Below, one piece after another: positions 3,770 to 61,029 of a DNA stretch of 64,000 nt; the stretch's first letter is position 1, and the number at the start of each line of letters is the position of its first letter. The DNA is taken from assembly GCA_021399445.1 (NCBI GenBank), contig JAJTUQ010000006.1, positions 1,798,001-1,862,000 on the forward strand, given 5' to 3'. Origin of the DNA: Xylogone sp. PMI_703 (Eukaryota > Ascomycota > Leotiomycetes). The notes beneath the pieces were generated by a model. It was not told the origin of the DNA. It saw only the letters and a program-made list of their open reading frames with translations, and did no database searches. The position numbers and the translations under genes are program-made.

Positions 3770-3974
3770 TGTTGGCAGTCATGTGACTGCACGCAAAGGC
3801 CACTCTCCCGGCAATATGTACACTAGTCCCAAATAGGTAGTCGTAGCGAAGGTGGGAGGGAGCATATACACTCTCTCCTCCACCACCACTTCAATACACC
3901 ATTCAGCTACCAACCACCATATCAATACGTACGTGTAATACGTGACGTATTATCGGTGGTGAGGCGTAGCCACA
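3770..3974 (+). repeat. 5' LTR of the copia element
   Basis: 205 bp, starting TGTTGGCAGTCATG and ending GTGAGGCGTAGCCACA. It is almost identical to 9899-10103. It contains a CT-rich stretch (CTCTCTCCTCCACCACCAC) and the near-palindrome TACGTGTAATACGTGACGTA. Confidence 0.95.
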
Positions 3975-7400: not shown

Positions 7401-9822
7401 ATATCATGGTCCTGTTCGACGAGCATACCATATTATTACAACAGAGATACCCAATATTTCGAAAGATGCAGCACTCCAAATGGCTTTCAAGGCAATCAAC
7501 GATTCAGCCGGACCTGATGGACTTGTCCCCACTCTTCTAGTATACAGAGCCTACTCATGCATATCTGAGTTCGACGTCCCCTCCCTGTCCATGGCACAAA
7601 GAGCAATCACAGTCAAGAAAACAATGGAGGAAATACAGAAAGAAAGAGCTAAGCATCAGGTCAAAGATACACTGAATATACAGAACGGCCCGAACCTTGA
7701 AAGCATACATAACTTACCACTGAATTCTGAAGTCCTTGTATGGAAAGAGGGAAAAGGAGGCAGCAAAGGAAACTGGGAAAGCCCTTATAACCTTATTAGC
7801 ACGGACGGTGATACCTGCATACTGAAACTCCCACACAGTAACACACTTTTCAGGTCAACTTCAATAAAACCATTTCTTAGGCCATAAAGTAAAGTAAAAG
7901 AAATCGAACTACCAGACCTAAAAATACCAGAAGAACAGCCAACCGGAGGGGATAAACCAATCGACGAGCAACCACCCAGCGAACAGCCAAAAGGTGAGAC
8001 GTCCCAGGGCATGGAACCTCCAACACTCGTACCACAACAACTAATGAAACGAGGACAAGGAAAGCCACAGAAATATCCAATCGATATAGGACAACTGAAT
8101 GTAAAGGTATCCTTACAGGAAATCGATAAAGACCAAGAGACTATCGATATACGTACGTTCTTACAAAATGACAAAGACTCTGCACAATATACAGAATCAC
8201 GACAGTTAGAAATGACAGGCCTCATACAGAAAAGAACCTTCCAAAAGATGAAAATTAAAGATATCCCTAAAGGTACACAAATCTTCGATGCAAAATTCGT
8301 CGACGAGATTAAGCATAAAGGAACAGAGAGAGTATACCCAAAGTCAAGACTCGTGATTCAAGCATATAAAGACGAAAGAAAAGGCCAAGTGTTAACACAG
8401 TCTCCAACAATACAACGTGCCAGCCAACGTCTTATCTTGTGCATAACAATTATCTATAAAGATAAGGTCAAAGTATTCTTGCACAACATTACACAAACCT
8501 ATATACAATCCTTGATGCTCTTGAGACGACTTTTTTATATATAAGCACTTCGCGAACTAGCTATACGACTAAATTTGACGGAAGACGAGGCACTGTGGGT
8601 GATCCGACCATTATACAAAGTCCCCGAAGCCGGAAATCATTGGTATGACACATACCATAACCACCATATTGTTCAACTCGGCATGAAAACCTCTATGTAT
8701 AACCTATGTTTATTATACAACAACGAACCACGGGGAGTTATAAGACTACAAACTGACAATACCCTGTTCGTGGGGGATGTTCAATTCGCCCAAAAGGAGC
8801 AAAAAGAGCTTGAAAAGGCAAAGTTCATAACGAAGGACAGAGAGATGCTGACCCGGGAGACCTTAATCAAGTTTAACGGCAATGTAATACGACTTCAGGA
8901 TAACGGATTAAAACTTACTCAGGCTCGTCAATATACTAATATACAACTTGTGAACGAAAAACCAGCAAACACGACCAGTTCAAGGGGGACCATACGCCGA
9001 AACCTCTCCACAAAGGACCAATATGTTACACACAGGGCAAAAGGAGCATGGATTGCGTCATGTTGTCAACCGGAAGCCGCTTACAACTTATCAGTAGTGG
9101 CCCAAGCCAAAGAACCAACCACGGAAAATATTAAGAACTTAAATCAGTGCCTGAAATGGCAAATGGAGAACCCTGAACGAGGATTACAGTATGTTGAACT
9201 AGACGAGAAGACCCTACAACTGCTTGTCTTTTCCGATGCCTCTTTCGCGAATAACAAAGATATAAGCTCTCAGGTAGGTTACGTACTAGTTCTGGCCGAC
9301 GCAGGTGGCAACGGCAATATTATATACTAGTCTTCCACAAAATGTAAAAGAATCACATACAGTGTGTTAGCCTCTGAACTTTATGCAATAGCAAATGGGT
9401 TTGACATAGGGGCATCAATAAAGGTAACCATTGACAAGATCATGGAGAACAATATACTACTGATTCTGTGCACTGACTCGAAATCCTTGTTTGACTGTTT
9501 CGTTAAATTAAGTACCACCCAGGAGAAAAGGCTTATGGTTAACGTTATATGTCTCCGGGAGGTATACGAGAGACGCGATATCGCAGAAGTCAAGTGGATA
9601 AAAGGGGACACAAATCCGGCAAATGCTATGACGAAAAGAAAACCATCGAACGCCCTGAAACAACTGATTGAGACCAACAGAGTACAGCTAGACGTGTTGG
9701 AATAAGTAGAAAGGGACGGCATGGTCACGGAAAGTAATATAGAAGTCGATATTGGAGGCGATACAGGAATTGATATCGGAGGGATGGAACCCCAGGTCAC
9801 GGGAGAGACTAAGCCTGAATAA
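4423..9822 (+). pseudogene. Copia gag-pol polyprotein, disrupted by in-frame stops
   Basis: All open segments lie in one frame from ATG 4423 to TAA 9820-9822 (1800 codons). Internal stops are at 4567, 4651, 4669, 5566, 7195, 7225, 7246, 7885, 8542, 9328 and 9703. Gag occupies roughly 4423-6430. The protease site near 6470 reads DTEA where copia proteases have DTGA. A His/Cys GAG-pre-integrase finger lies near 6930-7060 (YCTHCQEHEKA). The integrase core includes VTDTRKQFTGKEF and VEAHHSIGIVERYH. The reverse transcriptase second catalytic block near 8750 reads LQTDNTLFVGD, with Asn where the second Asp of the DD pair is expected. RNase H ends near 9620 (WIKGDTNPANAMTK). The stop at 9328 stands where WSSTKCKR-type tryptophan is usual, so it fits TGG to TAG. 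Every stop can be explained by C-to-T on one strand, suggesting RIP-like mutation. Confidence 0.9.
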
Positions 9823-9898: not shown

Positions 9899-10103
9899 TG
9901 TTGGCAGTCATGTGACTGCACGCAAAGGCCACTCTCCCAGCAATATGTACACTAGTCCCAAATAGGTAGTCATAGCGAAGGTGGGAGGGAGCATATACAC
10001 TCTCTCCTCCACCACCACTTCAATACACCATTCAGCTACCAACCACCATATCAATACGTACGTGTAATACGTGACGTATTATCGGTGGTGGGGCGTAGCC
10101 ACA
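9899..10103 (+). repeat. 3' LTR of the copia element
   Basis: 205 bp, starting TGTTGGCAGTCATG and ending GGGCGTAGCCACA, directly followed by the AGTAT duplication at 10104-10108. Confidence 0.95.
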
Positions 10104-34093: not shown

Positions 34094-36177
34094 TTACATG
34101 TCTTTGTATTTGCAAATGAAGTCATGTAAATCTTTCACTGTCTCAGTGGGCGCGATATTCATATAGCGACAGCTTTGATCTCTCAACTGTCCAACCTTTA
34201 AAATTGTTCTCGTAAGCCACCAGAATTCTGTAGCATGTCTCCCTAATGCTGTTTGGCGGTGAAGTTTAAAGTCTTCGCTCTTAGTCACAGTGTCCCAGAA
34301 TACTTTCCATGTGTCTGTTGCGCGAAGGATTGTCCCTGCAGTTGCCTGCGACAAGAGACTAGATCTTGACACAATAGTAATGGACTGAAGCGCTTCGGAC
34401 TTTTAGTTCCAACTTTTCCATAGTAGTAGGCAGTAACTCACCACAGATAGTGACCAGCAAATGGAAAACTGTCATGCCTCTATACCTGAGGTCTTGAGGG
34501 TCTGGCCCGAGCTCTTCGAAACAGGATGAGACGAAGTCGGACGGTGATGGAGGTGGCGCACCTATAGATTCCAGTGATGCCAACTGCTCGAAGCGGGGAG
34601 CAGTATCAGCTTCAAAAAATTCTTCCGGGCAGGGAAAGTCCCCAATCATCTCGGAAATTGCCACTCCTGGGGGACTATTAAAGAACATTGCGAAGATAGT
34701 GTCCGTAAGGAAAGTCCAGATTGCTATTCTGGATTGCAGTTATTAGCCAATGCACATAGCGCAATTAACAAACTGTACCTTATGCGCATCTCATCGAAGA
34801 TGAATTGTTGCCAGTTAAATCCGGCAGGATCCTGTAAAGAACACCGACGCCTTACTCGGAACAAACCAGAAAGTCTCACTGCAGTTACAAGACATGGATA
34901 CCTTTCAAGTCGACTCCGCCGTTGCGCGGTTATGTCATTCGTACTGTTCTGCATTATTTGGACGAGAAGTGCTGCTTGCAAAGCCTGTATCGTGTCGGAG
35001 GTACTTCTTGCTTCATGATCGTACTGAAATGATCGTCCGAAAGTTGGATGACTAAATACAAACTCTTCTACGATGTCTAAAAATTTCTGCGTCGATGTGG
35101 CCAGATCTAAAGGCACGGAACATTGAGACCCGAAGAGGAAAAGTGCAAGAAGAAGTGGTAGAGATGCACTCTCAATATTAAATGTCGGTCGGTGTATAAT
35201 CGGGATATGGCCATGAAAGCGGTCGAAATAGACTCTGACAAAGTGCCTGAGGTTGGCGACGGTGAATACTGATTCTGCAAGCTGTATATTGAAGTCTCCC
35301 TGGAATCCATGGCGGCTCCGCAACATTGAATTTGTAATGGACAGTTGTGAGACGATATCACTCATGCGAGATTCTAGAACGACAGATCCCTGAAGTTGAA
35401 AAAGCGGATCATATTGGCTGGAACTGTATTCTTCAACTGACTCTGAGGAGAACATATCAACTAGACTAATGAAGCCATCTCCCAGGTCCCAAAAAAACAT
35501 ACCTGTAGTGAAACTGTTATCCGATGGCTGAAGGTAAGAGTGGGTAATCTCACTCTCCATGTAGGTTTGCTCAATACTAACTTCGGCAATTGCTGTAGAC
35601 GTAGCGTATGGAGAAGGATCGGTAAACTCCATAAGAAATGAGATAGGGATTCGGCCATAGAGGCGATTTTGGTCAACACTACTGCGGTGATTGCTGGCAA
35701 CACTGAGCGGGCGCCTAGGAGACGTGTAAGGGAGCAGCCGTTTGTAGGTGCATGCCGCCTCACGAGTGCAGCATCGCTGGCAAGGTGAATTTGCGTCACA
35801 CGAAACCTTCAGCTGTGAGCATCTGTCACACGCCTGCCGCCTCTTGCCACGCTTCTCTTTTGGAAGTTCAATGGAGTGTCCATCAGGAGAACATTTGCTG
35901 ACATGCCGGCGAGCTACGTCCCTATTCAAACTCAACATAAGTCCGGTATGAGTGACTGGGACACGTTACGCTCTTGAAAAATCCCGGTCGCAAAAGGGGC
36001 ACAGTAACGCATGCCTGGTAAAATCTAGCAGTCGTAAGCAACAAACAGTCAAAATATCAAAACATTCTTACGCGTTGCTTCATGCCGACGCAAATGGCTA
36101 TTGGATGAATAATCTTTCCCACATGTCGAACAGTGATACCTGCCAGGGGAAGAATTATTGATACGTGGGCTTGGCAT
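34094..36177 (-). CDS. Transcription factor with two C2H2 fingers plus a Zn2Cys6 cluster
   Basis: Start ATG 36177 (MPSPRINNSSPGRYHC). Exons: 36177-36072, 36024-35970, 35921-34779, 34728 to about 34450, and a last exon ending TAA at about 34094. Splicing gives two C2H2 fingers in the first 60 residues (YHCSTCGKDYSSNSHLRRH and LCPFCDRDFSRADVARRH). A Gal4-type cluster follows directly (ACDRCSQLKVSCDANSPCQRC). After a Ser-rich linker comes the fungal-specific TF domain (HIPIIHRPTFNIES, LDIVEEFVFSHP, then WTFLTDTIFAMFFNSPPGV). The splice after LVTICGELLP is uncertain because the final exon (FWDTVTKSEDFKLHRQ) lies in another frame. Double C2H2/Zn2Cys6 regulators often control secondary-metabolite clusters. 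It stands at the left edge of the NRPS-like/pterin region, and a foldback element lies 44 bp before its start. Confidence 0.85.
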
Positions 36178-36220: not shown

Positions 36221-36389
36221 GGTAATAGTTGGCTCGCTCGGTTGCTTGGATATCGCTCGCCCCTGGGTGGTTGGGTGGTTGGGTGGTTGGGTGGTTGGGT
36301 GGCCCCCTGGGTGGTTGGGTGGTTGGGTGGTTGGGTGGTTGGGTGGTTGGCGAGCGATATCCAAGCAACCGAGCGAGCCAACTATTACC
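36221..36389. repeat. 169-bp foldback element: 41-bp perfect inverted repeats around a GGGTGGTT array
   Basis: The arms 36221-36261 (begins GGTAATAGTTGGCTCGCTCG) and 36349-36389 (ends CGAGCCAACTATTACC) are perfect reverse complements over 41 bp. Between them are two blocks of the octamer GGGTGGTT: four copies plus a GGGTGGCC variant (36265-36304) and five copies (36309-36348), each block preceded by CCCT. The array has many GGG/GG runs, so it can form G-quadruplexes on the plus strand. No target duplication is obvious. It lies in the 5' region of the regulator gene that starts at 36177. Confidence 0.9.
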
Positions 36390-37572: not shown

Positions 37573-38987
37573 TTACGTTCTGTAAGCTCTTTCCAATACC
37601 TCCTTCTTATTCATTTCGACGGCCTGCCTTCGCCTTCTCATCTGCACCCATATAGTAAACGGCTGGAGCGCAATAGAAACTGCCACCCAGCTGATCAGCA
37701 CTCCGAAGTTCAGCCCCAGCAGATTCTTTGTCCCGAAGAGGAGCGCTTTTGACCCTATCACCACATGCCGAAGTGGCCACGCTAGGCCCCACAAATAGAA
37801 ATTGCTCAGCGATTCGATGGGGAAGAATCCCGTCGTCACATTGCTGATGACCCAGAAAACGAAGAAGACAGGCGTGATGGGCATCCCAACGACATTGTTC
37901 ACGTTCTCGATCGCCAACCCGAACGCCATCATCCCAGCCCATGAAAGCATCCAATAGATGACGTACCCCGAAGCACCGTAAAACCGGCTGAAGCTGATTT
38001 GCCAGGCGCATGAGAGAGCGAGGTAGAGGAGCGAGAGGAAGAGGTACACGACTGGGAAGACAAGCAGACGGTAAATGTAATAGCGCACATTAGGCACCTT
38101 GCCCATCATAGCTTCGTGTAGGAAATTGAACATTAGAATAGAGAGAAAGGAGACTATTATAAGATCTATGTCGTGTTAGAAGCGGAAGGACGAGAGATAG
38201 GCTAGGTCTTACAAATAGTCCCAATTTCTGTTGCAGCTTCGGCAGTACTAGGTTCGTAGGGTGCCGTATTAATGAGGGTGTAACCAATTGGAAGAGGGTT
38301 GTCCGCCTGTCTGGCCAAGGCGGCAGCATTTCCAGAGTTTGAAGCGGCTAGAGATCGCTGTTTCCGTAAGGTAAAGGACGTGAGAAATTGGTCGAGAAAT
38401 TCAGTCAGAATAGGGTAGATGAATTCGGAGATTACGAGAGAGTTTCTGCCTTCCTCGAAAAATACTTGTACTAACCATGATGGATCATAGCTCGAATTTC
38501 CAACAGAATAAGCATGATTCATGGCCGTGGTGGCATTGGCCTCGACCACAATAGCTATCCAGAATTCCTCCTCCCTCAACGCGTGGGTGACCATCTGGTT
38601 GGAGTAATTATATTTCGATCCTGGTACGGATATGAACCCTAGAGTCTTGCCTAAAGCTGCTGCCCGAGTTGCGGCGCCCATTTGCTGCAGAGAGGGGCCC
38701 ACCTCTCCATTATCGAAATCTATTATAGCAACAGTGAAAACAGAAAGGTTGTATTGAATGCTGTGAAGTGCCCCCCAGTATATGGACATGATCCCCATAA
38801 TAATTGTAGTGAGCAGGGCGACGAAAATAACGAACACTTTCGTCCATGTTTTTCTCTCCATCGTCATAAACGGAGACCAAAGCCTTGGCAGTTCATGGTC
38901 CAAGAGCTCTTTCTCTTCAGATGGAGCTATCCCATTCCTAGGGAGCGATGCATCCTCAGTAGCAGTTTCTGTTGAAGGGTCGCTCAT
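37573..38987 (-). CDS. DUF3533/Sng1-type multispanning membrane protein
   Basis: Two exons (38987-38213 and 38165-37573) joined by a 47-nt intron (GTAAGA...CATAG) give 455 residues. Residues 1-45 are polar. TM1 follows (VFVIFVALLTTIIMGIMSIY), then a large extracytosolic loop with FTVAIIDFDNGEVGPSL, VTHALREEEFWIAIVV and FFEEGRNSLVISEFI. About five C-terminal helices follow, including YLFLSLLYLALSCAW and FFVFWVISNVTTGFFP. This is the plan of the yeast Sng1 (nitrosoguanidine resistance) family, distantly related to ABC-2 permeases. It may export a metabolite or alter membrane leaflet composition. The next gene along is the NRPS-like enzyme, divergent from it, so it may serve that cluster. Confidence 0.85.
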
Positions 38988-40596
38988 CTCCAATGCTCAG
39001 GGAGGGGAAACCCCGATGGTTTTAAATTGGCCCAGAACAAATTTGAGTATAGAGAGAAAGGGTACTAGTACATGATAATATGTATATATATATATTTAAA
39101 TATAGCTAAAAGGATGAATTGGAACAGATACAAAGGTGTTGTTGTTGATGTCGTCATATGACGCCGCACAAGTATGCCTTTCATGTTTTCACATTGCAAC
39201 ATCAGGTCCAGACCTTCTCTCTCACATTTATGTGTGTAGAAAATTGTCTCAGGAGACACATATCGCCGACTCTCCCGGCGTTACGGGTTTTCCTGTCCGC
39301 CCTTCCTTTTCCCGTCTCTTTCATCTCAGGTCTAGCTATAGAATGTCTCTCGTTTGTCTGTGGCCATGTGTTGACCTGTACAAGTAAGGGCTCCCAGTAG
39401 TATTCGGTTTGACGGACTTACTCGGAGTATGTCACATGAACCCTAGTCCCGCTAATTGGAGGCTGGGGATCGCCATGCAGAGCAGAACCACATTGGCGTC
39501 CAGGGACTCCCAGACAACAAAGAATTAGCTATATTGATTCTATAGTCATTTCTCCACTACACACTCTTCCCCATTACAGGGCTTCAAGATATTTCCTCCG
39601 ACTAGAAGTGTCCAATAAAGTTCGATAGTTAAGAAAATAGAATACATATTATTTGTTATCGAGAATTTCGTCATTTAATTAAGCTTGTTAACTGGTAACA
39701 AATAAAAGGTTAGTTTAGAATTGAAGCTGGATCGTTCTATTACTTAGTGGACATCCTGGTAAGTTCTTCCCTGTAGTGGGTTCTCTCCCGCAATTGTGGG
39801 CTCTTTCCCGTGGTGGGTTCTCTCCCGCAACTGTGGGCTCTTTCCCCGTGGTGGGTTCTCTCCCGAGTCGACTTTCATGCCGGGTCGGAACTTGTAAACT
39901 TCCGTTGCTTAGAAAGCACACTGGTCGGGTTGGTTATCTAGAAGATTTATCATCGTCTCCGTTATAGAACCAAGTTTGAGGATAAAGCTCGGAGTCACAA
40001 TCCTCCGATCTTCTACAATACTGCTCCGCAATATAACCACTCATATGTACGTGTGATCGGCAATAACAATCCATGTGATGACACATGATGTAAAATCGAT
40101 GAGAGAATGTGCCGTCCTTGTGATGGCATTCTTGGCTTCTGAATGATGTCTCGGCATTCCCGTTTGTCATAAGCACCGATGGGAGTCGACCGTGTTTGCT
40201 GGAAGCATCTACAAGTTCTTGATTTTCCTAATTGGAGTTGGCTGTCATCAGGTAGTGGTGATCATGATTAAATGTGCTCATGCGATCCACAAATCTTCTC
40301 TTTGAGCGTTACAGATGCCTTATCTTTTCGGTTAGTTACTCTACTACTGTGATATGAGTGGTGGAATCTTATAACTAGCTTAGTGTCACCTAAATACATC
40401 AGCATGGTTATGAGGTGAGATGTAAACTAAGTAGTACAAGAGAATTGACAAAAGTCTAGTAAAAGTGGATATAAACCCCTGAATGTACTGCATTGGCATC
40501 TTTTCATTATAATCAGATAAATCAACGAGAGAATATTCCAGTGTTATTCAAACTGTGTCCTGATTAAGCATCATTTCTTAATATTCTGTGCCAATA
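38988..40596. promoter_or_regulatory. Divergent intergenic region between the Sng1-like and NRPS-like genes
   Basis: No gene recognised. It contains the second minisatellite locus and must contain both promoters. The stretch before 40597 is AT-rich with a C/A-rich leader. Confidence 0.45.
39775..39868 (+). repeat. Minisatellite, locus 2, same unit family as 32795-32893
   Basis: Alternating units GTGGTGGGTTCTCTCCCGC and AATTGTGGGCTCTTTCCC, five in all. The shared core is GTGGGYTCTYTCCCG. Confidence 0.8.
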
Positions 40597-43500
40597 ATGT
40601 CGGAGATACAATCAGGCCTTGGCAAACGTCGTTTAGTAACGCACATTATCGATCAGATTGCAGCCGAGGACCCGTCTCGTCCTTGGATATCTGTTCCTCG
40701 CACATCTGATCCTGGGGATGGGTGGCGCGACATTACGTACGGTCAATTTGCGAATGCTATCAACATTGTTGCACATGAGTACATTAAAGAGTTCGGCACC
40801 CCAGTTCCAAACACCTTTCCGACCATTGCCTACATTGGCCCTAATGATGCGAGATACTTCGTATATTCCATTGCAGCGGTCAAGGCCGGATATCAGGTAT
40901 GTGACATACATCATATGATTGCTCTTGGCAAAGTGGCGCTATCAGACGCAACCAGACGGCTTACAGAACATGGTTTTATAATAGAACCTCCTTATATCCC
41001 CTCGAAACAGTGAGCAAGGACAGCTATCGTTGTTTGAGGCTACTGATTGCAATGCCATATACTACACATCGACCTATAAGGCGGCCATCCAACCATGGCT
41101 GCAGAAACGGGAGATGTGGGTGGTTGAGATCCGCAATATCCATGGGCTGCTTGACGACTTAGAGCAGGCAGAAGCATTCCCCTACAACAAAACTTTTGAT
41201 GAGGCGGAATGGGATCCATTAGTTGTAATGCACACGAGTGGCAGCACCGGAATACCAAAGCCTATCATCATCCGCCAAGGCACAGTAGCAACATGCGATA
41301 CTTTCCGTGAACTGCCTAAATTCCATGGTCTTGATGTTTGGACAAACGCATTCTCTCGAATCTCAACGAAATGCTATATTCCAAGTCCGCTACCCCCTTC
41401 CCGTTATAACGTTGAAATCAAAAGTCACTAATATCGGTGCTAGTGCCGTTATTCCACGGCGCTGGATTCGCTGGTTGCGTTATGTTTGGAATATATGGAG
41501 GCGTTCAGATCGCTTTAGGTGTTACAGATCGTCCGCTATCATCTACCTTAGTCATAGAGTCATTAGCACACTGCGGAGCTGATTCCACATTGCTCTCGCC
41601 ATCTATCTTGGAAGAATTGAGTCGTATGAATAATGCCATCGATTTACTTGGTAAACTGAAGATGGTTGTATTTGGTGGTGGTAAGTGTTACCCTTTGAGA
41701 TTTTAAAGTTCCTATCGAGATCACGAACGCTCGTCCATTTGCATGTAACGGCTCAAGTTCATTTTTACTTAGGAAGCCTTGGAAAGGAAGCAGGCGACAA
41801 ACTCGTTAGCAGTGGCGTCAATTTGGGAAGCTTCATATCTACCACAGAGTGAGTCTCAGCGTCTCTGTAACGTCTCAATAACGATGCTAAAGGATATATA
41901 GATGCCTTCCTTATCTTATTTACTTGGATAAGGATCCTGCCAACTGGCAGTACTTCGTTTACAACGACGATCTGTTTGGATGTGAATGGCGTCCAACTAC
42001 TAGCGAAGACGACGTATTCCAATTGGTTATTGTGCGTAAGGGGAAGGAACCTGGCTTACAGCCCTGCTTTTATACGTTCCCAGAGGACAATGAATATGAC
42101 ACCAAAGATCTATTCAAGCGCCATCCTACGCTTCCTAACCGTTGGAAATTCCATGGGAGATCTGATAGCATCATTGTCTTCTCTAATGCCGAGAAGTTGA
42201 ACCCAGTTACCATTGAGGAAATAGTTACTAGTCACCCAGATATTAAGGGTGCTGTTGTCTTCGGACAAGGCCATTTCCAACCAGGACTGTTAATCGAGCC
42301 TGTAGAAAATCTTGAAAATCATGAACAAGCGTCCAAGCTACTGAACAGTGTCTGGGCTAAGATCAAGGAAGCCAATGAAGTTACCGTGGCCCATGGGCGA
42401 GTCTCACGGCAATTTGTTATTTTCACGAACCCGGAAAAGCCACTTCCCAGGGCGGGGAAAGGTTCAATCCAGCGAGCTGGCGCTCTCAAGCTGTACAAGA
42501 ATGAGATTGACAAGCTGTACGCCCATACGGAAGGCGATCTCTCGATAGATGATGTTAAGTTAGATATCAGCTCAGAGAATGCTTTGGCAAAGTGTATCGT
42601 AGCACTGTTCCGATTCTCACTCGGGATAGCCAACATAGACGACTCTAATACTAATATCTTTTCTGCTGGGATGGACTCGCTCCAAGTTATGGATGGTTCT
42701 CGAATGCTGCGATCTGGGCTCCAAGCGGCAGGGTTGAAACCCGAACTGGCGGCAGTAGCTAACCGCGATATCTACGACAATCCAACAGCCCATAAGCTTG
42801 CCGTACATATTTTCTCTCGTTTTTCTAATCCAGACCAAGGAGAACAGCTCAACAAGGATAGTGATGAGAGGCAAAATGACATTGCGGATGCCCTTGTGGT
42901 CAAATACACCAATGAAATGCCGATCTCAGCCAGCGGTAAGCCACAGCCAGCAGCCACCGGGCAAACCATCATGATTACTGGCTCAACCGGCAGTCTGGGT
43001 TCATACATGCTAGATATTGTACTCGAAAGCTTATCCATCGGAAAGGTGATCTGCCTGAATCGTGGCGATGATGGTGGTCGGCAGAGGCAGGCCAAGATCA
43101 GTGCTGAACGGGGCCTCAGAACAGATTTCACAAAGGTAGAGTTCTACAGCGCCGACTTATCGCGATACAACCTGGGACTCAAGACCTCAGTCTACGCGGA
43201 CCTGCTCAGCAAAGTCGATCGTATTATTCATAATTCTTGGTCTGTTAACTTCAACATTGATGTCGAGACTTTTGAACCGCACATTCATGGAGTTCGGAAT
43301 ATTGTTGAATTTGCATCTAGATGTTCGAAACAGGTTCCCATTGTTTTTCTTTCATCTATAGGTTCCGTTATGAAGTGGAACAAGGACGGGCCTATTCCAG
43401 AAACTAGTCTTCCGGACTTTGCGATAACTGAGGGAGGTTATGGGCGTGCCAAGCTTGCTGCCAGCATGATTCTGGAAAAGGCGTCACAAATCTCCGGAAT

Positions 43501-44062
43501 CTCTGCCGCATCCATTCGCGTGGGCCAAATCGCCGGCCCTCTCGGCGAAAAGGGTGAGTGGAACCGCCAGGAGTGGCTTCCAAGTCTTATTTTCTCATCT
43601 GCTCATATTGGAGCACTGCCGGAGAGTTTAGGTCCCATGAGCTCGGTCTCGTGGATGCCTGTCGAGACTGTAGCCCAAGCGGTGCTTGAACTCTCTGGGG
43701 CCATCTCCTCAATTCCACTTTCAGATATCACTGGTTATTTCCATTGCGTGAATCCCACGAAAGCAACCTGGCAGGAGCTTTTGCCTGCCATCTTAGAGTT
43801 TTTTAAAAGCCGCGACTGCAAGCTGGAGGTTGTCCGTCTCGCGGATTGGATTCACAGAGTAGAACAGGAGAAGGATGTTAGCAAGAACCCAGCTACGAAA
43901 TTGCTTGAGACTTATCAAGGCTGGTTAACAGCAGAAAAGGCAGGCCAGACTGAGGTCGAGCTCTCTGTAGAAAGAACTAAGACTTACAGTAAGGCAATTC
44001 GGGAAATGAAAGCGATATCGCCAGAGCTGATGTCTCATTGGTGTCAGCAGTGGTATAGGTAA
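40597..44062 (+). CDS. NRPS-like adenylate-forming reductase (A-T-R)
   Basis: Five exons (40597-40896, 40985-41384, 41444-41680, 41773-41848, 41902-44062) total 3174 nt and give 1057 residues. Adenylation domain: about residues 20-520, with VVMHTSGSTGIPKPI (A3 core), KMVVFGGGSLGKEAGD, WKFHGRSDSIIVFSNAEKLN (A7-A9) and PLPRAGKGSIQR (A10 lysine). Carrier domain: about 560-640 with NIFSAGMDSLQV, whose Ser takes the phosphopantetheine arm. Reductase: about 690-1057, NAD(P)-binding ITGSTGSLGSYMLD, substrate-side VFLSSIGSV and the GGYGRAKLAAS Tyr/Lys pair. Such enzymes activate an aryl or amino carboxylic acid and release it as aldehyde or alcohol. The donor at 41385 (GTCCGC) is unusual but restores the MPLFHGAGF motif and the frame. 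It is probably the core enzyme of the cluster. Confidence 0.9.
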
Positions 44063-44888: not shown

Positions 44889-45151
44889 GCAATAGGCTCC
44901 ACAGAAATAATGTTGCTACCGGAAGTAAAATTAGATGCCTACCGATATATGTGACTTACTAATCAGTATAGTCTACTATTATAGTATAACGGTGTCCGAG
45001 AATTTCCAGATCATATTGCACCCCTTTCAGCATTCTATGACAGATTAGAAGAACACTGCCAGCTATTGAGGCAAGACTTTTCTTACTGCACCTTTTCGTT
45101 GACTTCGCACTGAAAACCGGCTAGTGCTGTGGAACCCGTCATTTTCCTGTT

Positions 45152-46293
45152 ATGGCATCCCTAACTGATCTTATACAGGCTGCGGTAAGCTGTTCAATGT
45201 CAACCCCTATTCAAGTTTTGTATCCAGAGCCAGAAAATAGCGATGGAACTCGTCAGATTCAGGGAATGTTAATTGAAATCCCTGACAAGAACGGTGTTAT
45301 CCGCATCATCAGCTCTGCAATCGCAAGGGATAGGAAGATTACCGTGTTTTACCATACAGCGGTTCCAACAGAAGATGCAGTGCCATCTTTCTATCACCAA
45401 GAGGCTTACACCGCTGTCATAGTGTGGAGCGGGCGCTTCCAGTTCTGGAATGGTGATAAGGCACATGAATTGTACCGCGGAGACTTTGCCTTTATCCCGC
45501 CGGTGAGTGCATTTCATCGTCATGTTGTTTACCATGTGGAAGACTTACTTCTATCAAATGTTAGGGGACTGTCTACGGCTGCCAACCACTTACATCGGAT
45601 TCAGAATTACTGGTCCTCACTACTCTGGAGAACCCATCTGACCTTTTCCGATTGGTAAGCCCAGAAAAAGGCAAGATGCTGCCAACTACACATACCAGTC
45701 TGCTTGAAAATATTTCTATATATTCAAATGACACTTATGTCAAGCATAATTATTGTCCACCCAAGTTGATGAATTATTTAGACTCGGACAATAGAGTGCC
45801 AGAATCACCACAGCCATACTTCCTTCGTGTCCAGACTAGCCATAGGTGGGCGTTCGACGGGGTGATGTCAAGACCCTGCGTTAGAGCAGTGCAATCCGGG
45901 GGCAAATTCTCAATCTCGGCCATGGAAACGTCCCATATGAATAGAACAAGGCTGTTCCTCAATCGGTGGCTAAAATTCACGAGAGTAGACCACTGCTTTT
46001 TGGTCATTGAGGGAATATTTAAGGTGAAGTTCAAAGGAGAGCCGGAATGGACACTTGTGCGAGAAAACCAGGTTATTGCAATTCCAGCAAGACACGGGTT
46101 CACTGCCGATGTGGGGAGTGAGTTTCTTCGGCTGGTTACGTTCGCCAACGGGGCTGGTATTGATGAGTTAATATACAAAGCCGGCTATGAATGTCAGAGT
46201 CTAATCCTACCAGAAGTAGCGAGTCGTTGGAATGGTTGGGATGAACTCCGGTTCAAGTCAGCTTGTGTGGAAGTAGGAGCTCTCCTTGAATAG
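45152..46293 (+). CDS. Bicupin, quercetin-2,3-dioxygenase-like
   Basis: Exons 45152-45502 and 45565-46293, with a 62-nt intron that has a consensus GTGAGT donor and a TTAG acceptor; 359 residues. Splicing at this point joins DFAFIPP to GTVYGCQPLTSDSELLVL, restoring the usual cupin strand (FIPPGTVY); without it the two halves lie in different frames. The N-terminal cupin (about 55-150) has FYHQEAYTAVIVWSGRFQFW and GDFAFIPPGTVY. The C-terminal cupin (about 225-330) has VDHCFLVIEGIFKVKF and NQVIAIPARHGFTADVG. The metal-binding His/Glu set is only partly canonical: the first domain keeps H-x-E, the second replaces much of it. Bicupins of this kind oxidise flavonols or act on aromatic metabolites. 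It is transcribed in the same direction as the NRPS-like gene 1.1 kb upstream. Confidence 0.75.
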
Positions 46294-52363: not shown

Positions 52364-52867
52364 TTATGATGATTCCTCGCTCGGCACGACATCGTTCTCG
52401 TACCAAAACGACAAGCCATGATCTTCCTCGATCCCTACCCCCAGCTTATTGATCCTTGGCCCCACCACTGGCTCAAGTTGCTTCCAGATGTAGGCTGCGA
52501 GAGACTCTCCAGAGATATTCCGCACGGGAAGTTCCACAACACCCTCTTCCGGAAACTGCCACTTCTTCGTATGAAACTGCGCCTCAACGACGCCGTGAGT
52601 GCGCATTATCTGCACTAATGGGCTGTCTCGTGGCAGAAGGGTTTTCTGATTGAACAGAGCACAGACTTTGCGTAGCGCTTCTATTGGCTTTTCAATATCC
52701 AGAAGCAGGTCGTGGTTATCGAGGGTATGGCCGGAGCAGGAAACCTTGACATAGAAGTTGTGGCCGTGAAGCTCTTCGGTATTTTCGGGACCAAATATGG
52801 TGAAATGGGCTGCAGAAAAGCGATATTCTCTCCCATCAAGGAGGAATCGGTAGGTGCTAGTCATCAT
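52364..52867 (-). CDS. 6-pyruvoyl-tetrahydropterin synthase-like protein with altered active site
   Basis: A single exon of 167 residues, a normal length for the T-fold PTPS/QueD family. The zinc ligands are kept: His21 in FSAAHF, and His34 and His36 in LHGHNFYV. ISGESLAAYIWKQL and the pterin-anchoring Glu in GVGIEEDHG are also present. The catalytic Cys expected before the HGH motif is missing (FGPENTEELHGH has Glu instead), and the Asp-His relay pair before the LLP motif reads Asn73-Gln74 (FNQKTLLP). PTPS converts dihydroneopterin triphosphate, the product of GTP cyclohydrolase I, to 6-pyruvoyl-tetrahydropterin. With these changes the protein may do a variant reaction (some Glu-type PTPS make 6-hydroxymethyl-pterin) or only bind pterin. 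A GTP cyclohydrolase I gene lies 6 kb away on the same strand. Confidence 0.85.
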   Translation of the reverse strand: MMTSTYRFLLDGREYRFSAAHFTIFGPENTEELHGHNFYVKVSCSGHTLDNHDLLLDIEKPIEALRKVCALFNQKTLLPRDSPLVQIMRTHGVVEAQFHTKKWQFPEEGVVELPVRNISGESLAAYIWKQLEPVVGPRINKLGVGIEEDHGLSFWYENDVVPSEESS

Positions 52868-53645
52868 GCTAAGCTGTAATACGAGCGAGCAGTTAAGAAA
52901 CTTGAGTATGATTGTTTGGGATCAATGAAGCTTATAACTATCGGTTTGAGTTGCAGAGGCGACTGCTCAATGATATGAGTGAGGAAAAGAATTGTGGGAC
53001 GCATCAGATGCATGAAGCTGGATAGCTGCATCTATGGACCTAGGCATTCAGATACCTAGAGTTGCAATGATGTCTCCACTCTCAAGCGTATCAGACTACC
53101 ACTAAGGCTACAGAGGGATTATTTCCTTAACAAAGAATACTCTAAAAATACATAAATGATTGCAAATCAGTTTCGAACTTCCTCACAAATTCGTCGAATT
53201 TACAGTATTCCCAGTTAAAATTACGCAGCCTCCGCTATGGACTGGTGTTTTATTGCCGTTAAATACTCTACGTTCAGAGGATAGGCGGGCAAAGAAACCT
53301 ATGAAGCTCATCTGCGTATTTCCTACTACGCCATTTCCTATACGTAAGGCTGACTGCCGCGTAACTTACCCCTCAAACTTGCGATTTGTATCTCGATATG
53401 CACTACTATGATAAGTATTCGAGTCTATGTGGATTACGTATCTGCTCTACCTGGCATGTTATAATTACTCTTCGTCCATTTGTATAAATCTCCTTGATGT
53501 AGGACACATATGCATTATCGAGCACAATATTGAACAAAGTATGTATTGTTCTAAATATCAACTATATTCTCCCACGACTACGACTCTACCCCTTCCCTTA
53601 GACACACAAGCATGAAACAAATCCCCTAGTATTCTCCATCCCTCA
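52868..53645. other. Intergenic, no gene recognised
   Basis: Holds the promoter of the PTPS-like gene and the 3' flank of the peptide gene. Short frames at 53160-53411 and 53427-53615 have no support. Confidence 0.5.
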
Positions 53646-53889
53646 TCAGCCACCTGTCTCCACTACAACCTCAAGCACAGCATGATACGGCTATTAAACG
53701 GATGGCTTTTTAACATTAGCGAAGTTTTGGTTCTCTCGTCTTGACACTTACATCGAGCCCGGTGCATCGGCGATCGACTGAAGTATTAGGCTCTCCGAGA
53801 GCACATGAGGTGTCTGAATTGGGTGGGATACTTGGAACAGCAATGGCGGCGGCTGCGAAAGCCAAAATGCAAATGAGGTTAAATTTCAT
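53646..53889 (-). CDS. Small secreted peptide (60 residues), two exons
   Basis: Exon 1 is 53889-53752 (46 codons) and exon 2 is 53690-53646, joined in phase 0 by a 61-nt intron with GTAAGT donor, GCTAATG branch and AATAG acceptor. Residues 1-18 (MKFNLICILAFAAAAIAV) form a classic secretion signal with a likely cut after AIA. The mature part of about 42 residues has two Cys (Cys29 and Cys42), a dibasic RR (SVDRRCTGLD) that could be a Kex2-type site, and an acidic/hydrophobic tail (AVLEVVVETGG). It is too short for usual ORF cut-offs. It may be a secreted effector-like peptide or a precursor peptide for the nearby UstYa-type oxidase. There is only one copy of the core, unlike typical dikaritin precursors with many repeats. 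Confidence 0.7.
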
Positions 53890-54000
53890 GGTGTTTAGAG
53901 CTGACTGGTGATCGTAAAGTCTCTTATATAATGTTTGTGATGAGTGTGGTGATAAAAGTGTGTATTTGAGCAGCTATAGTCACCAGCTTTATATACAAAT
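53890..54000 (-). promoter_or_regulatory. Core promoter and leader of the secreted peptide gene
   Basis: Reading the minus strand, a TATA box GTATATAAAG lies at 53996-53987, about 100 bp before the ATG, and a second TATATAAGAG at 53930-53921. Between them is a CA-rich leader (TTATCACCACACTCATCAC), and the start context is AACACCATGA. This layout is typical of strongly expressed mould genes for secreted peptides. Confidence 0.6.
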
Positions 54001-54987
54001 TGCCCAGCTGGCAACTCTCTGCTGACGGGGTTTTCTCTGGCTTGAGCAGGTGCATAAACAGAGATTGCTGGTCAACGTAGAGTACTATCCCACTTGAATG
54101 TACAATACTTGCCAGGGAAAATAGTTATCATAAAAGTGGATTTTGATACAACTTCGAGTAAGCATTGCCAGGGCCCCTTTTACTCGATTAGGAAGTTTTG
54201 AATCTACTATGCTGAAGTTTCAGTAGATCAAAACACCAGAACTAGTGTAGTTGCGGTTAAGCGCTTTTAAAGGGAGAATAGTAAGTTAAGACGACGCGTC
54301 AACAGGTTAAGCTAACTGAATATCTCCTACTTTTTCACCGCTGGTCTGCTGCTGGTATCATTTGACGATTAACTTAGTGATTTGGTACTGTATTCATGAA
54401 TAATCATGGCGAGCTCGCAGTAAACTTGGCTTTAAAAAGGCATTAAATAAAGCAGTTTCAAATTATCTTTAAATAAATATGTAATATACAGAGAAAGACT
54501 GCAAATATTTTGTCTCAGGCAGTACTAAGCCTTAAGCTAATACAACTGATCTTCTCTGTCACATTGTACCAAAACCTAAGAGTGACTTAGTGTTACTGGA
54601 TATGCTCTAGCTGTGCTTAATCATCAGTCAATCGGTATATGGGCCACAAATTAATGATAATGCGAAATCGGTGAAGGGATGCATGTTTGTACCCTTAACG
54701 GCTAGACAACATTGTCACGAGCAAGAACATTGCAAAGCGGATCGGTTCGTCCAGTATCACATTAGGCTATTAATGACTATCCAGCTACCCTAGCATAAGT
54801 GTCACCTTGCACACTCAACCAGCTCCTCTACGTTTCACGTTTGTGGTCTTAAAATTATGCACTGTTATATCTATAAGTGCTAGAACCACTGTTTGCTTGA
54901 TTTGACCGGTGCAAGTCCGTGTCAGAAAAAACCCATTGGTCACTTATCAAGCATCAGCCATACCAACCATTGAGAGCACATGCCAAA
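54001..54987. other. AT-rich intergenic stretch
   Basis: No gene recognised. It lies between divergent promoters of the peptide and SDR genes. Confidence 0.5.
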
Positions 54988-55872
54988 ATGAAGACTGAAC
55001 ATAGTGGACCAGACGTAGAGCGCTTTGCCAGCACCCGTCATACAACTTACCCCTTCATTTCCGATAACCATCTAGGTCTCTCTGGCAAGTCTGTCATGAT
55101 TACAGGAGCGTCAAAGGGAATCGGAAGAGTCATCGCTATCCGCTTTGCTAGATCTGGTTGTTCTCGAATCGCTCTCGTAGCTCGATCCTCCCTCCATGAA
55201 GTCGAAGCGGCAATCCTGGCAGCTGCAATAGCTGCAAATCATCCACCACCGCACATCTATGCGCTTCGCCTTGATGTTAGCTCCCCTGAGAGTGTCAAAG
55301 CTGCTGCCGCCGCGATCGGCACAGCCTTTGGGGGGAGCTTGGACGTGTTAATCACCAACGCTGTTGTCATGGAGGAGTGGCGGACCATTACTGAGGCTGC
55401 TCCAGAGGAGTGGTGGAGAACTTGGGAAGTTAATCTAAAGGGGGCATTTCTCTGCGCTCATTTCTTCATCCCTCTTTTGCTGAAGTCGGAGAGCAAAATT
55501 CTTCTCACCGTCTCTAGCGCAGGCGCATATAAACTTGGGATCGGAGCTTCTTCGTACAATACGTCTCGGCTTGCCGCTTGCAGGTTTAACGAGTTCATTG
55601 ACCACGAGTATGGAATGAATGGACTGATATCTATTTCTGTAAATCCTGGGAATGTGAAGACGGACTTGTCGCTCAGATTTCCTAAGTGTTTGCTAGGAAA
55701 CCTAGTTGATGATCCGGAACTGGCGGCTGACACCATGGTCTGGCTGAGTGCGGAGAGAAGAGAATGGCTGTCCGGTAGGTATATTAGCTGTAACTGGGAT
55801 ATGGAGGAACTCGAGAGCAGAAAGCTTGAAGTCATAAACGCAGACCTGTTCAAATTTAGATTAGCAATGTAG
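54988..55872 (+). CDS. Short-chain dehydrogenase/reductase with Arg in place of catalytic Lys
   Basis: A single exon of 294 residues from the ATG at 54988; an in-frame GTG upstream is less likely. The Rossmann motif TGASKGIG is at residues 39-46. LDVLITNAVV stands where NNAG is usual, so that motif is degenerate too. The catalytic Ser is near 177 (TVSSAGAYK) and Tyr190 is in YNTSR, where the fifth residue should be Lys. SVNPGNVKTDLS and DDPELAADTMVWLSA match the large fungal classical-SDR group. The fold would bind NAD(P)H and reduce a carbonyl; sepiapterin reductase, the third enzyme of tetrahydrobiopterin synthesis, is also a classical SDR. The Lys-to-Arg change may lower or change activity. 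It is an intronless cluster member lying between the peptide and UstYa genes. Confidence 0.85.
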   Translation: MKTEHSGPDVERFASTRHTTYPFISDNHLGLSGKSVMITGASKGIGRVIAIRFARSGCSRIALVARSSLHEVEAAILAAAIAANHPPPHIYALRLDVSSPESVKAAAAAIGTAFGGSLDVLITNAVVMEEWRTITEAAPEEWWRTWEVNLKGAFLCAHFFIPLLLKSESKILLTVSSAGAYKLGIGASSYNTSRLAACRFNEFIDHEYGMNGLISISVNPGNVKTDLSLRFPKCLLGNLVDDPELAADTMVWLSAERREWLSGRYISCNWDMEELESRKLEVINADLFKFRLAM

Positions 55873-56528
55873 AGATCGAGGACTCTAGATTATTCGCTCA
55901 ATCAGCCACAGAATTGCTACTCCTAAACCATAATGTAAACCTTTTATTACGTAATACTTCCCAATCCTCTAAGTTATCCATAAAGCCACATCTATGTGAA
56001 ACAGCCGTGTTTTTTTTTGCTCTACCAAACCTAGTAATGAATTCGTAGCCCGCGTGCTGCATTTCTAAAGCAATCTTCTCCTGTTAGTGTCAGAAGAGAC
56101 TGCTTAGATTGAAGGCCTCAGCTAGTAACGTAAAAGCCAGGCTCTTCAGTGGGTAAAATCTGTTGTATCTTAGTTATTGATGTTACTAGATCGTTTCACG
56201 ATACTACGGTGACGACCCTCCTAGGTGCTAGGAACTAGACAAACTCAGGAGTCTTGACCGAAAATGCCACTGGGTTATATATGTATCTACATCTCGTTGT
56301 GAAAACTCTAACCACTCTACTTCTGCCACGGAAATATTTGCCCTAAGAGCGTGTACCTCTTCGACAACATATTCATACAACCCACACCAGTTCTATAAGC
56401 CTAACTTTAGACTTTTGAACTAAAGTTCTAGCATCATCGGATCCTTTGGTTGCCTTTATCTCGACAAATTTGATTTCCCAGGTTTAACAAAGACCGGGAA
56501 AACCATCGAATTATCCCTCGAGTCTACG
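55873..56528. other. Intergenic, no gene recognised
   Basis: Contains a T run (56011-56019) after the SDR gene. No frame of interest. Confidence 0.5.
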
Positions 56529-57389
56529 ATGGAGCTGCAGGAAAGCAGGTATAACCGCATTGAGCAGGTATAACCGCATTGAGCAGGATAGAGATTGCGA
56601 CAGCGTGGATTGTGCTTATTCAGGCAAATATTATACAAGTCTCACACTTCTGAGATGGTCCCTCCTGGTAAATTTTGCTTTGACGTTGGGCGTGATCGGT
56701 CTAGGAGCTAGCTTCCTTTGGCAAAATTACAAATCAACCTCCGCGGTGTACAACAACGAGATTCTTAGCAGCCAACTACTAGAGAAACAGTATGGAGTTT
56801 CAATCAAGATTCCAAAGACTTACGAGTTTTTTCAGAATGACTTTGATCCTGACGACTTCAAAAAAGGTGATCCTTACTGGGAGGCTCTTTTTCCAAGTAA
56901 GACTATTCTTCTGAAACTCGCTATCGAGATGATCCTGACACGGAACGCAGGGGAAACGGCGTAGTATTCCTGTCCGACGAGCTCGTGGAGGCGTACAGGC
57001 TCCCACCGGCTGCAAGACATCCACAGAGAGGGAACCGTTCTGTCTACGAGATCGCGGGATACCACTCCTTGCACTGTCTAGTGAGTCCGTATGGTATCGT
57101 TAGATGTCAATCATTGCATGCTAATATTGTGAAGTCAGCTGTGCGAGCGACCACCAATAGGCTGCTGAAAGCTCAGGAAACTTCCCAGCCATACATCATG
57201 GATCATACTAGGTGGAATCACATCAAACATTGTATAGGAGACTTGCGTCAATACCTACTTTGCAATTTTGACGAGACCCTCTTAGTGGGACACGATTCGA
57301 TACACCCAGGCAAGGACCAGACGAAGCTGTGTAGGGACTTGGGTCCGATCAATAAATGGATAGAAGGCCATTACATTCCTTTAGAATGA
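56529..57389 (+). pseudogene. UstYa/DUF3328-type oxidase, disrupted by a 19-bp tandem duplication
   Basis: From ATG 56529 the frame reads MELQESRYNRIEQV then TAA. A 19-bp unit (AGCAGGTATAACCGCATTG) is present twice, at 56544-56562 and 56563-56581. If the two units were one, the frame would run directly into DRDCDSVDCAYSGKYY and the rest of the protein, so the duplication breaks the gene. Downstream are a single membrane anchor (WSLLVNFALTLGVIGLGASF), a stalk, and the two diagnostic His/Cys motifs: YHSLHCL and HIKHCIGDLRQYLLC. A second frame change near 56895-56955 is not resolved by a normal intron (a GTAAGA donor gives the wrong phase). UstYa-type proteins are membrane oxidases that cyclise or desaturate peptides and other products in fungal clusters. 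No other in-frame ATG would rescue the N-terminus. Confidence 0.75.
56544..56581 (+). repeat. 19-bp perfect tandem duplication inside the UstYa-type gene
   Basis: AGCAGGTATAACCGCATTG occurs twice head to tail and is followed by a third partial AGCAGGA. Because 19 is not a multiple of three, it shifts the reading frame. Confidence 0.95.
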
Positions 57390-57980
57390 GTAGCACCAGC
57401 GACAAACTGTGATCAACTTTAGCTTAGAATAGTCAAATAGAACCTCCCTGATAGCGCCTGCCAAGATCAGAGCTCATATTTCAATTGGAGTTTCTTAAAT
57501 AGGTTAGTCAGCACTAAACTCGGCTCACGCACTTTCGTTGAATAAATTCAACGAAAAGGAGCTGTCAGCTGAATCCATATTGATGTTGCGCTTACGCGCG
57601 GCTCCGTTCAGCCCCTGTTCGCGAACCTTCCAATGTCGCATTTCATCAGACGGATACCCTTTTCAGCAAGCACGGATTTTGTAGTGGAACCAATCTCTTT
57701 ATGTTAGATCGCAAGTCACAAGCTGTGATAATCAGTCGCTCTCTAGACTCTCTGTGTGCTCGATTGGAAAGGTGTGTTCTTGCCTCTGCATTTAACCGTT
57801 TGCCCTGTCTAGCCGTTAAAGTAAGTTGTCCGATCTGAGAAGATCATCATGTAGATGACAACGTGAGGTCGCGGACTCCTCTGGTGACGCCAAGTAGCCC
57901 GGGGTTACGGTCTCTCATATCTTCAATTATCTGTTGTGCTGGTATGATACATTTGGATTCTAAGTGCTACCCGACATTAT
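57390..57980. other. Intergenic between convergent genes
   Basis: A perfect palindrome-like CGTTGAATAAATTCAACG lies at 57536-57553 and may act as a transcript-end hairpin. No gene seen. Confidence 0.5.
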
Positions 57981-58834
57981 TCAGCGACGAAGCGTTTGCC
58001 AGAAGTCGTCCCTCAGATCTTTCTCCTTATCAAAAACTCCTAGCATACAGGTTGTTACAGTTGTTGCTCCAGTTTTCTGGACGCCGCGCATTACCATACA
58101 TCGATGGGAGGCTTCCACAACCACTGCCACCCCACGAGGTTGCAGGACGTCAAACATGCAATGTGCAATCTCCGTTGTCAGCCGTTCCTGGACTTGCAGC
58201 CGCCGGGCAAAGACTTCGGTCAGACGTGCCATTTTTGATAGACCTACAACGCGGCCATCAGGGATATAGCCAATATGAACCTGTGCAGATATTAGTCGCC
58301 CTTCCCAATATGACATCAACTCATTCTTACCTTCCCGATAAATGGGACTAAGTGATGCTCGCAGAGACTGGAGAAATCAATGTCTCTGACTAGAACAAGG
58401 CCCTTATGATTCTCCTGAAACATAGCATCTTTCAGGACACTGGTAGGATCCCGCGCGTAACCATGCGTAAAATACAGCATGGCTTTTGCGAAGCGGTTAG
58501 GAGTCTTGGTAAGACCTTCTCTTTTTGGGTTCTCGCCCAGCACCTCCAGCACACTCCGTATGGCGCGGGCAACTCTTTCTTGCTTTGAATCTGTTTCCGA
58601 ATCTAACGGATATTCCAAATGTTTCCGTCCCATGTCTGGAACATTATTTAGCAAGGCGCGTATCTGGAAAGGGAAAGGGCGTGCGATCTCACCGCAATGA
58701 GTCGTCTCGTTGTAGTCCAGAATCGGAATGCTTTGGACAAGTACCTTCTCTTTCAAGAAACTAGTTCTGAGTCCTTGTAGGATAGATTCGCGATCTACTG
58801 AGATACCACTGGAAATGGTAGGCGGCATTTCCAT
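57981..58834 (-). CDS. GTP cyclohydrolase I
   Basis: Exons 58834-58331 and 58280-57981, with a 50-nt intron (GTAAGA...GCACAG) splitting GK/VHIGYIP, give 267 residues. Residues 1-75 form a fungal N-terminal extension. The catalytic domain has NPKREGLTKTPNRFAKAMLY, VRDIDFSSLCEHHLVPFIGK and GYIPDGRVVGLSKMARL. It continues with RRLQVQERLTTEIA, GVAVVVEASHRCMVMRGVQK and TVTTCMLGVF. The zinc ligands (Cys and His in CEHH, and the later Cys in HRCMVMRG) and the catalytic His are kept, so the enzyme looks functional. It converts GTP to 7,8-dihydroneopterin triphosphate, the first step of folate and pterin synthesis. Fungi need one housekeeping copy; this copy sits among cluster genes, so it is probably a second, dedicated one. 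Confidence 0.93.
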
Positions 58835-59991: not shown

Positions 59992-61029
59992 ATGGCTGCT
60001 AAAGAATTAGTTAAACCAAGCGAGATGTTCACACACGCTGCTGCTGGGGCGATGGGGTCAATTGTAACACTGATTCTGACGTTAGTATATCGCTTCCCAG
60101 CTGCTTTCCAAACAAGCTAACCCACCCGAGTCAGATATCCTTTGCAGATGATATCCACAAGTGCACAGCTAGGAGGGCGTATCTTCGAGCCAATGCCTCT
60201 TTCAAGAAGCTCTATTCTACTTAATTTCCGAAATATTGCTTGTCTATATGTCGGGATCGAGTCTGCGGTTTTTGGTATTGCGGTCACAAATTTCGTATAC
60301 TATTATGGTTAGTTTCAAGACAACAGTGCGTACTTTCTAGGTTCTGGTCTCACCACAACAAGTGTACGAAAGTGTAAAAAATGTCTACAGCAACTCACAA
60401 GATGCGTCGTCTCTAGGATATATTATTGCTAGCTCCGTATCTGGGATAGTGACGGTTCTGATAACAAATCCCATCTGGGTTATCAACACACGTATAGTAG
60501 CGAATGCTCAAGATATCATGACTCAATCACAGGCTGTTGGTTCTTTTTCGACGTTTTGTACGCTTCACTCTATGATGAAAGATGCGGGCTTCTCAGCCCT
60601 TTTTGCTGGAATTAAGCCGGGTCTGCTCCTTATAACAAATCCAGTGCTGCAATACACATTATTTGAATATCTCAAGCATGTTGCAGATGCAAAACACAGT
60701 CCGGCAGCCCTGATAGTTACTTTACTTTTGGGTGGATTCACAAAATTCGTCGCGACTGCTCTGACATACCCTCTTATCATGATTACCAGTAGAGCACATG
60801 CGATAGACCGGGAGAATCATTCTCTTGATATTCTTTCTTCTCTTAGAATCATTTTCTTGAAGGAAGGGTTCTTAGGGCTCTATCATGGTAAGCCATACTA
60901 TGGATATAACAAGAGATAGGCTAACCGTAATAAGGCTTTATTCCAAAAGTTATACAATCTGTCCTCTCTGCTGCTCTTCTTTTCCTCTTCAAGGAACTAT
61001 TCTACATAATCGTCTGTGGCTGGAGCTGA
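59992..61029 (+). CDS. SLC25 carrier, peroxisomal PMP34/Ant1-like
   Basis: Four exons (59992-60080, 60135-60307, 60363-60887, 60935-61029) join in frame. The three carrier repeats can be followed, each with a P-x-hydrophobic-x-x-x-(K/R)-like kink: TYPLQMISTSAQ, TNPIWVINTRIVANA and TYPLIMITSRAHA, plus GFSALFAGIKPGLLL and EEGFLGLYHG-like blocks. The second motif, NPIWVINTR, is characteristic of the peroxisomal adenine-nucleotide/CoA carrier group. The last exon supplies FIPKVIQSVLSAALLFLFKE. First-repeat residues are less conserved (Q for the usual acidic residue). It should exchange nucleotides or cofactors across the peroxisomal membrane. Its place next to the pterin genes may mean that part of the pathway is peroxisomal. 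Confidence 0.85.

What the first reader, a model, noticed from the sequence alone, without database searches (positions are those of the whole stretch)
52364..58834. Clustered pterin-pathway families (GTP cyclohydrolase I, PTPS-like, SDR) with a UstYa-type gene and a secreted peptide
Within 6.5 kb lie homologues of the three enzyme families that make tetrahydrobiopterin (GCH1, PTPS, sepiapterin-reductase-type SDR), mixed with a DUF3328/UstYa oxidase gene and a short secreted-peptide gene. An NRPS-like reductase, a bicupin, a Sng1-like membrane protein and a C2H2/Zn2Cys6 regulator lie on the left. This combination suggests a metabolite pathway that makes or uses a dedicated pterin. I know of no described fungal product from such a set.
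Basis: partly seen in the sequence, partly recalled or inferred. Interest (0 to 1): 0.88.

Follow-up and report, generated by a model that had tools for sequence, protein, structure and literature searches.

The report
Fungal pterin module with bacterial-type PTPS
A fungus (Xylogone) carries, side by side, a spare copy of the enzyme that starts pterin synthesis and a bacterial-looking second-step enzyme, which suggests a private supply of a pterin building block for an unknown metabolite; some neighbouring genes look damaged or generic, so the product is a guess.

The parts
52364..52867 (-). PTPS, 167 aa, one exon; PTPS-III motif EELHGH (Glu31), zinc-type His21/His34/His36 (zinc role recalled); Asp73 of the family reads Asn
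53716..53889 (-). small secreted-peptide ORF, 57 codons as an unspliced frame; a GTAAGT near its end leaves a spliced C-terminus possible
   Evidence: no Pfam match; no clear paralog
54988..55872 (+). short-chain dehydrogenase/reductase, 294 aa, one exon, YxxxK reads YNTSR
   Evidence: PF00106 4.5e-31; alignment to 3rih
56530..57389 (+). UstYa-family gene with HSLHC and HIKHC; ATG-led frame ends after 14 codons at a 19-bp tandem repeat, so probably broken as assembled
   Evidence: PF11807 4.8e-14 on the C-terminal piece, no match on the N-terminal piece
57981..58834 (-). GTP cyclohydrolase I; exons 58331-58834 and 57981-58280, intron 58281-58330 (50 nt, GT-AG) at the same codon as in the C1 and C21 copies; CEHHLVPF and HRCMVMRGVQ intact
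   Evidence: NCBI's own model is P0004, 210 aa, with one more intron in the N-terminus
59992..60919 (+). mitochondrial-carrier family gene next to GCH1 (start approximate, by eye); possible member
   Evidence: PF00153 2e-20 on 60341-60919; 41% paralog at C1:4419154
41891..44062 (+). NRPS-like reductase, C-terminal part; membership uncertain
45125..46293 (+). cupin-type protein, membership uncertain; one cupin domain just under the cut-off, second half unmatched
37573..38996 (-). DUF3533 (Sng1-like) membrane protein, membership uncertain
34724..35965 (-). Zn2Cys6 regulator, membership uncertain

Best explanation
A dedicated pterin-supply module. The extra GCH1 turns GTP into 7,8-dihydroneopterin triphosphate and the PTPS-III-type enzyme cleaves its side chain to 6-hydroxymethyl-7,8-dihydropterin, in one step and apart from the folate aldolase. 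Neighbouring oxidoreductases (SDR; UstYa if it is functional in other strains; perhaps the NRPS-like reductase and cupin on the left, or P450 and BBE oxidase on the right) would then modify this pterin into a specialised metabolite. Shown: identities, the extra GCH1 and its clade, PTPS class by motif and fold, the pterin branch of folate synthesis elsewhere, the neighbourhood. Inferred: catalytic activity, reaction product, co-regulation, the tailoring steps, and the acquisition of PTPS from bacteria.
For: GCH1 at three places, the window one in a 7-row clade (100/99) apart from the C21 clade and from PlmC; key GCH1 segments intact (alignment to 37xd). Only PTPS hit of the genome, ExxHGH, best solved-structure matches by sequence and by fold are Plasmodium PTPS, whose Glu37 the entry titles call the catalytic residue. 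folB (C20), folK-folP (C21) and a GCH1 beside thymidylate kinase (C21) are present, so folate need not depend on this pair. Co-location p about 7e-4. Bacterial members of this PTPS family also lie by pterin-type genes: a GCH1 in the fetched locus in 2 of 80, one of them L020, the best match to the window protein; an SDR within 2 kb in 67 of 80 and a YhhQ-like transporter in 63 of 80.
Against: PTPS Asp73 is Asn (Asp in 23 of 23 other rows), the window differs at 12 of 48 near-invariant columns, and the branch is long (2.92); it scores below NCBIfam's cut-offs for the PTPS/QueD families. SDR lacks the catalytic Lys; UstYa start is out of frame; the four promoters share no 8- or 9-mer and 7-mer sharing is at control level. 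The fungi whose GCH1 is nearest (Thozetella, Phialemonium, Akanthomyces, Cordyceps) gave no PTPS hit, so the pair is not shown to travel together. The fungal SDR is 22-28% identical to SDRs in only 15 of 80 bacterial loci, and the 80 loci are not independent.
Confidence: 0.5

Rival explanations
1. Chance neighbours or a decaying cluster: a gained PTPS and a spare GCH1 lie together, but the other genes are unrelated or dying and no metabolite is made.
For: UstYa start out of frame; SDR Lys to Arg; PTPS Asp73 to Asn; no common promoter motif; UstYa abundant in this genome (108 pieces); no fungal ortholog of the PTPS seen.
Against: PTPS and GCH1 are open along their length with conserved cores; PTPS fold predicted at pLDDT 95.9; consecutive enzymes of one pathway 5.1 kb apart, p about 7e-4.
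Confidence: 0.3
2. Tetrahydrobiopterin (or biopterin-like) pathway: GCH1, PTPS, sepiapterin-reductase-like SDR.
For: The three enzyme families are present. Plasmodium-type PTPS is recalled to release some 6-pyruvoyl-tetrahydropterin as well (recalled, from no call).
Confidence: 0.08
3. A second, folate-directed route: GCH1 plus PTPS-III bypass folB and raise folate flux or resist antifolates.
For: PTPS-III works in folate synthesis in Plasmodium and various bacteria (PMC5041015 passages).
Against: folB (two exons, the first over the Pfam cut-off), folK-folP and a housekeeping-looking GCH1 are present; a setting beside UstYa and SDR is not a folate setting; PMC4224340 found no clear pattern of PTPS replacing folB in eukaryotes (passages).
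Confidence: 0.12

Closest known systems
PTPS-III (folate-type PTPS; Plasmodium PTPS, PDB 2a0s/1y13)
   Same: ExxHGH signature, aligned Glu and His residues, fold over 156 residues at 1.6-1.7 A
   Different: 22-28% identity; Asp73 to Asn; set beside a spare GCH1 in a fungus that keeps folB
Bacterial PTPS family found (named rows: Acidobacteriota, Gammaproteobacteria and others)
   Same: closest sequences, up to 44%; same motif; often beside an SDR, in two loci with a GCH1
   Different: bacterial; no description of its function met in what was read; Asp73 kept in the 23 rows
PlmC of Aspergillus flavipes (penilumamide cluster, link inferred from name and species)
   Same: fungal specialised metabolism with its own GCH1, 55% identical
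   Different: another GCH1 clade; product is a nonribosomal lumazine peptide with a pterin-specific adenylation domain (title of Heard 2023 seen in a reference list; paper not held)
Pepteridine cluster, Photorhabdus luminescens
   Same: GCH1, PTPS, pteridine reductase and NRPS-like parts in one locus (abstract and passages)
   Different: bacterial; [quoted passage not shown] no UstYa mentioned in the passages seen
UstYa/DUF3328 oxidases of fungal clusters
   Same: Pfam UstYa match and two HxxHC motifs (role recalled)
   Different: start out of frame as assembled

Membership tests
PTPS-III | ExxHGH motif | tested here: met
   EELHGH in the window; Glu31 aligned with the Glu of both Plasmodium chains; motif from PMC5041015 passages
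PTPS-III | fold nearest to Plasmodium PTPS | tested here: met
PTPS-III | makes 6-hydroxymethyl-7,8-dihydropterin | not testable with these tools
   needs an enzyme assay
PTPS-II (BH4 type) | CxxxxxHGH motif | tested here: not met
   no Cys in the eight residues before HGHN, GPENTEEL
PTPS-I (QueD) | CxxxHGH motif | tested here: not met
   same stretch; NCBIfam QueD 41.9 bits against a cut-off of 89.25
GTP cyclohydrolase I | NCBIfam/Pfam cut-off and conserved zinc segment | tested here: met
   TIGR00063 247.7 bits, cut-off 181.6; CEHHLVPF and HRCMVMRGVQ (zinc role recalled)
Sepiapterin reductase | nearest SDRs are sepiapterin reductases | tested here: inconclusive
   none of the 60 structures shown is named so, but 528 matched
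Sepiapterin reductase | catalytic YxxxK of SDRs | tested here: not met
   YNTSR against YGASK of 3rih
BH4 system | aromatic amino-acid hydroxylase as user of the cofactor | tested here: not met
   PF00351: no match and no first-look candidate; exon-by-exon search, and other users of BH4 were not sought
UstYa RiPP (dikaritin) cluster | intact UstYa and a precursor peptide | tested here: inconclusive
   UstYa start out of frame as assembled; the one peptide ORF shows no repeated core by eye; no other precursor was sought
Penilumamide-type cluster | GCH1 of the PlmC clade | tested here: not met
   window and PlmC in different starred sets
Penilumamide-type cluster | NRPS with pterin-specific adenylation domain | not tested
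   reference sequence not at hand

The most novel reading that the evidence does not exclude
A fungus has joined its own duplicated GCH1 to a PTPS-III gained from bacteria, making 6-hydroxymethyl-dihydropterin outside the folate pathway as the building block of an undescribed pterin metabolite: the first such eukaryotic natural-product route.
Probability: 0.3. Interest if true: 0.72.

Novelty: new variant of a known kind. Interest (0 to 1): 0.5.

Why it matters
Pterins are mostly known as cofactors. A eukaryotic cluster that makes its own 6-hydroxymethyl-dihydropterin would add a route to pterin natural products beside penilumamide and pepteridine. It also marks a GCH1 clade (Xylogone, Thozetella, Phialemonium, Akanthomyces, Cordyceps) that can serve as a hook to mine for fungal pteridines, and it corrects the automatic reading 'PTPS means biopterin'.

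Tried and rejected
BH4 pathway: disfavoured on motif, fold, SDR and missing hydroxylase match. Folate bypass because of missing folB: the first search gave no folB at E 0.001; a laxer one found two collinear pieces (E 0.0018 and 0.0027) and Pfam put the first over the cut-off, the second under it, so this was dropped. Shared regulatory motif: none in four promoters. Horizontal transfer by tree: the window PTPS falls inside a 41-row set of bacterial and unnamed rows (95/81), but on a long branch, and holding it together with Plasmodium is not rejected (AU p 0.35), so transfer rests on similarity (42% against 26-28%) and on the lack of fungal hits. Papers: searches gave nothing; others listed the papers that I looked into. 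That this combination is undescribed rests on these ten searches of an open-licence library only.

Full report
What is there. The window is C22:1798001-1862000 of a 50.13 Mb fungal assembly. NCBI's model of its GCH1 is named Xylogone sp. PMI_703, on a contig of the same length, 3,954,366; Xylogone is placed in Leotiomycetes. Pfam confirms PTPS, SDR, UstYa and GCH1 at the reported places, and on the left the Zn2Cys6 regulator, DUF3533 protein, NRPS-like reductase and, just under its cut-off, one cupin domain; the second half of the supposed bicupin is unmatched. To the right of the window lie a fungal transcription factor, a P450, an alpha/beta hydrolase and a BBE-type oxidase, so the outer limits of any cluster are open.

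GCH1. GCH1 is found at three places (7 exon matches). The C21 copy lies next to a thymidylate kinase and falls in an 8-row set (100/100) with Mollisiaceae, Cadophora and Sordariomycete rows, so it is the likely housekeeping gene. The C1 copy groups with Leptodontidium and Drepanopeziza (96/97). The window copy is 56-57% identical to them and joins a clade of seven (100/99) with two Thozetella genes, Phialemonium, Akanthomyces, Cordyceps and one metagenomic row. The tree held 49 rows, 46 of them picked by me from the 120 listed; it is rooted at the midpoint, and the program flags long end branches, two of them (Cordyceps, Phialemonium) in this clade. PlmC of Aspergillus flavipes is in a different clade. 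The intron after GK(V/M) is, by eye, at the same codon in all three copies, so the window gene is a fungal paralog.

Origin of the PTPS. A direct search of 5.8 billion proteins gave itself and two unnamed sequences at 41-43% (3 of 34 candidates; the search needs shared 5-residue words). A profile search listed 120 of 6446 matches; the rows that name an organism name bacteria and none names a fungus, but most bear no organism. A scan of prokaryote genomes found 176 relatives, 80 kept. The motif with Glu at -3 is read in 78 of 80, the other two not ending in HGHN; one of the two scan patterns contains it, so this is partly by construction. Two of 80 loci (L020, L021) hold a GCH1; 67 have an SDR within 2 kb and 63 a YhhQ-like transporter (the YhhQ name is recalled). 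The tree of 62 rows nests the window PTPS with Acidobacteriota and unnamed rows, but does not exclude other placements.

Folate is covered elsewhere. HPPK and DHPS lie together on C21, a two-exon folB is on C20; a folB-folB / folK-folP split is reported for Pezizomycotina in PMC4224340 (passages). Later folate steps were not sought. No Biopterin_H match, with the limit that the same exon-by-exon search missed folB at that threshold. So the pair is not needed for folate as far as tested, and no BH4 hydroxylase is seen.

The rest. The SDR is generic and has YNTSR for YxxxK. UstYa keeps two HxxHC motifs but its ATG-led frame stops after 14 codons at a 19-bp tandem repeat, and the frame with the membrane helix has no ATG before it; with 108 UstYa pieces in the genome one near by is not remarkable. 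The peptide ORF has no clear match. A carrier-family gene beside GCH1 has a 41% paralog elsewhere. Four promoters share no 8-mer or 9-mer, and the one shared 7-mer is within the level of 300 random draws (213 of 300 reach it).

Judgement. The pair GCH1 plus PTPS is the solid part: an extra fungal first-step enzyme beside a unique, bacterial-type second-step enzyme (p about 7e-4 for such closeness, after the fact). That this feeds a specialised metabolite is the best reading (0.5); a decaying or chance group is the main rival (0.3). Pathways of similar logic are known: pepteridine in Photorhabdus, where deletion of the GCH1 or PTPS homolog abolishes pepteridine A (passages), and penilumamide in Aspergillus. 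The statement that the penilumamide cluster is uncharacterised (PMC9861175, passages) seems overtaken by Heard 2023, of which I saw only the citation.

Noticed in passing
window 3770-3974 and 9899-10103: Two 99% identical 205-bp direct repeats flank long ORFs (4672-9330) that look, by eye, like a retrotransposon; the one ORF tested (5569-7197) had no Pfam match. Observed only.
   Followed up: no
window 36221-36389: A perfect 41-bp inverted repeat encloses a TGGTTGGG-type minisatellite.
   Followed up: no
L009 (C1:8751800-8761799): Another extra GCH1 (C1) lies between a DIOX_N oxygenase gene and a 1039-aa ORF with FAD-binding, phosphomevalonate kinase and phosphoribosyltransferase domains.
   Followed up: partly
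L020-L099: In many Gammaproteobacteria an ExxHGH PTPS sits beside an SDR (67 of 80 loci within 2 kb) and a YhhQ-like transporter (63 of 80); I met no description of this set.
   Followed up: partly
L015-L016 (right of the window): Transcription factor, P450, alpha/beta hydrolase and BBE oxidase about 1-16 kb right of the window look like a further metabolite cluster.
   Followed up: partly
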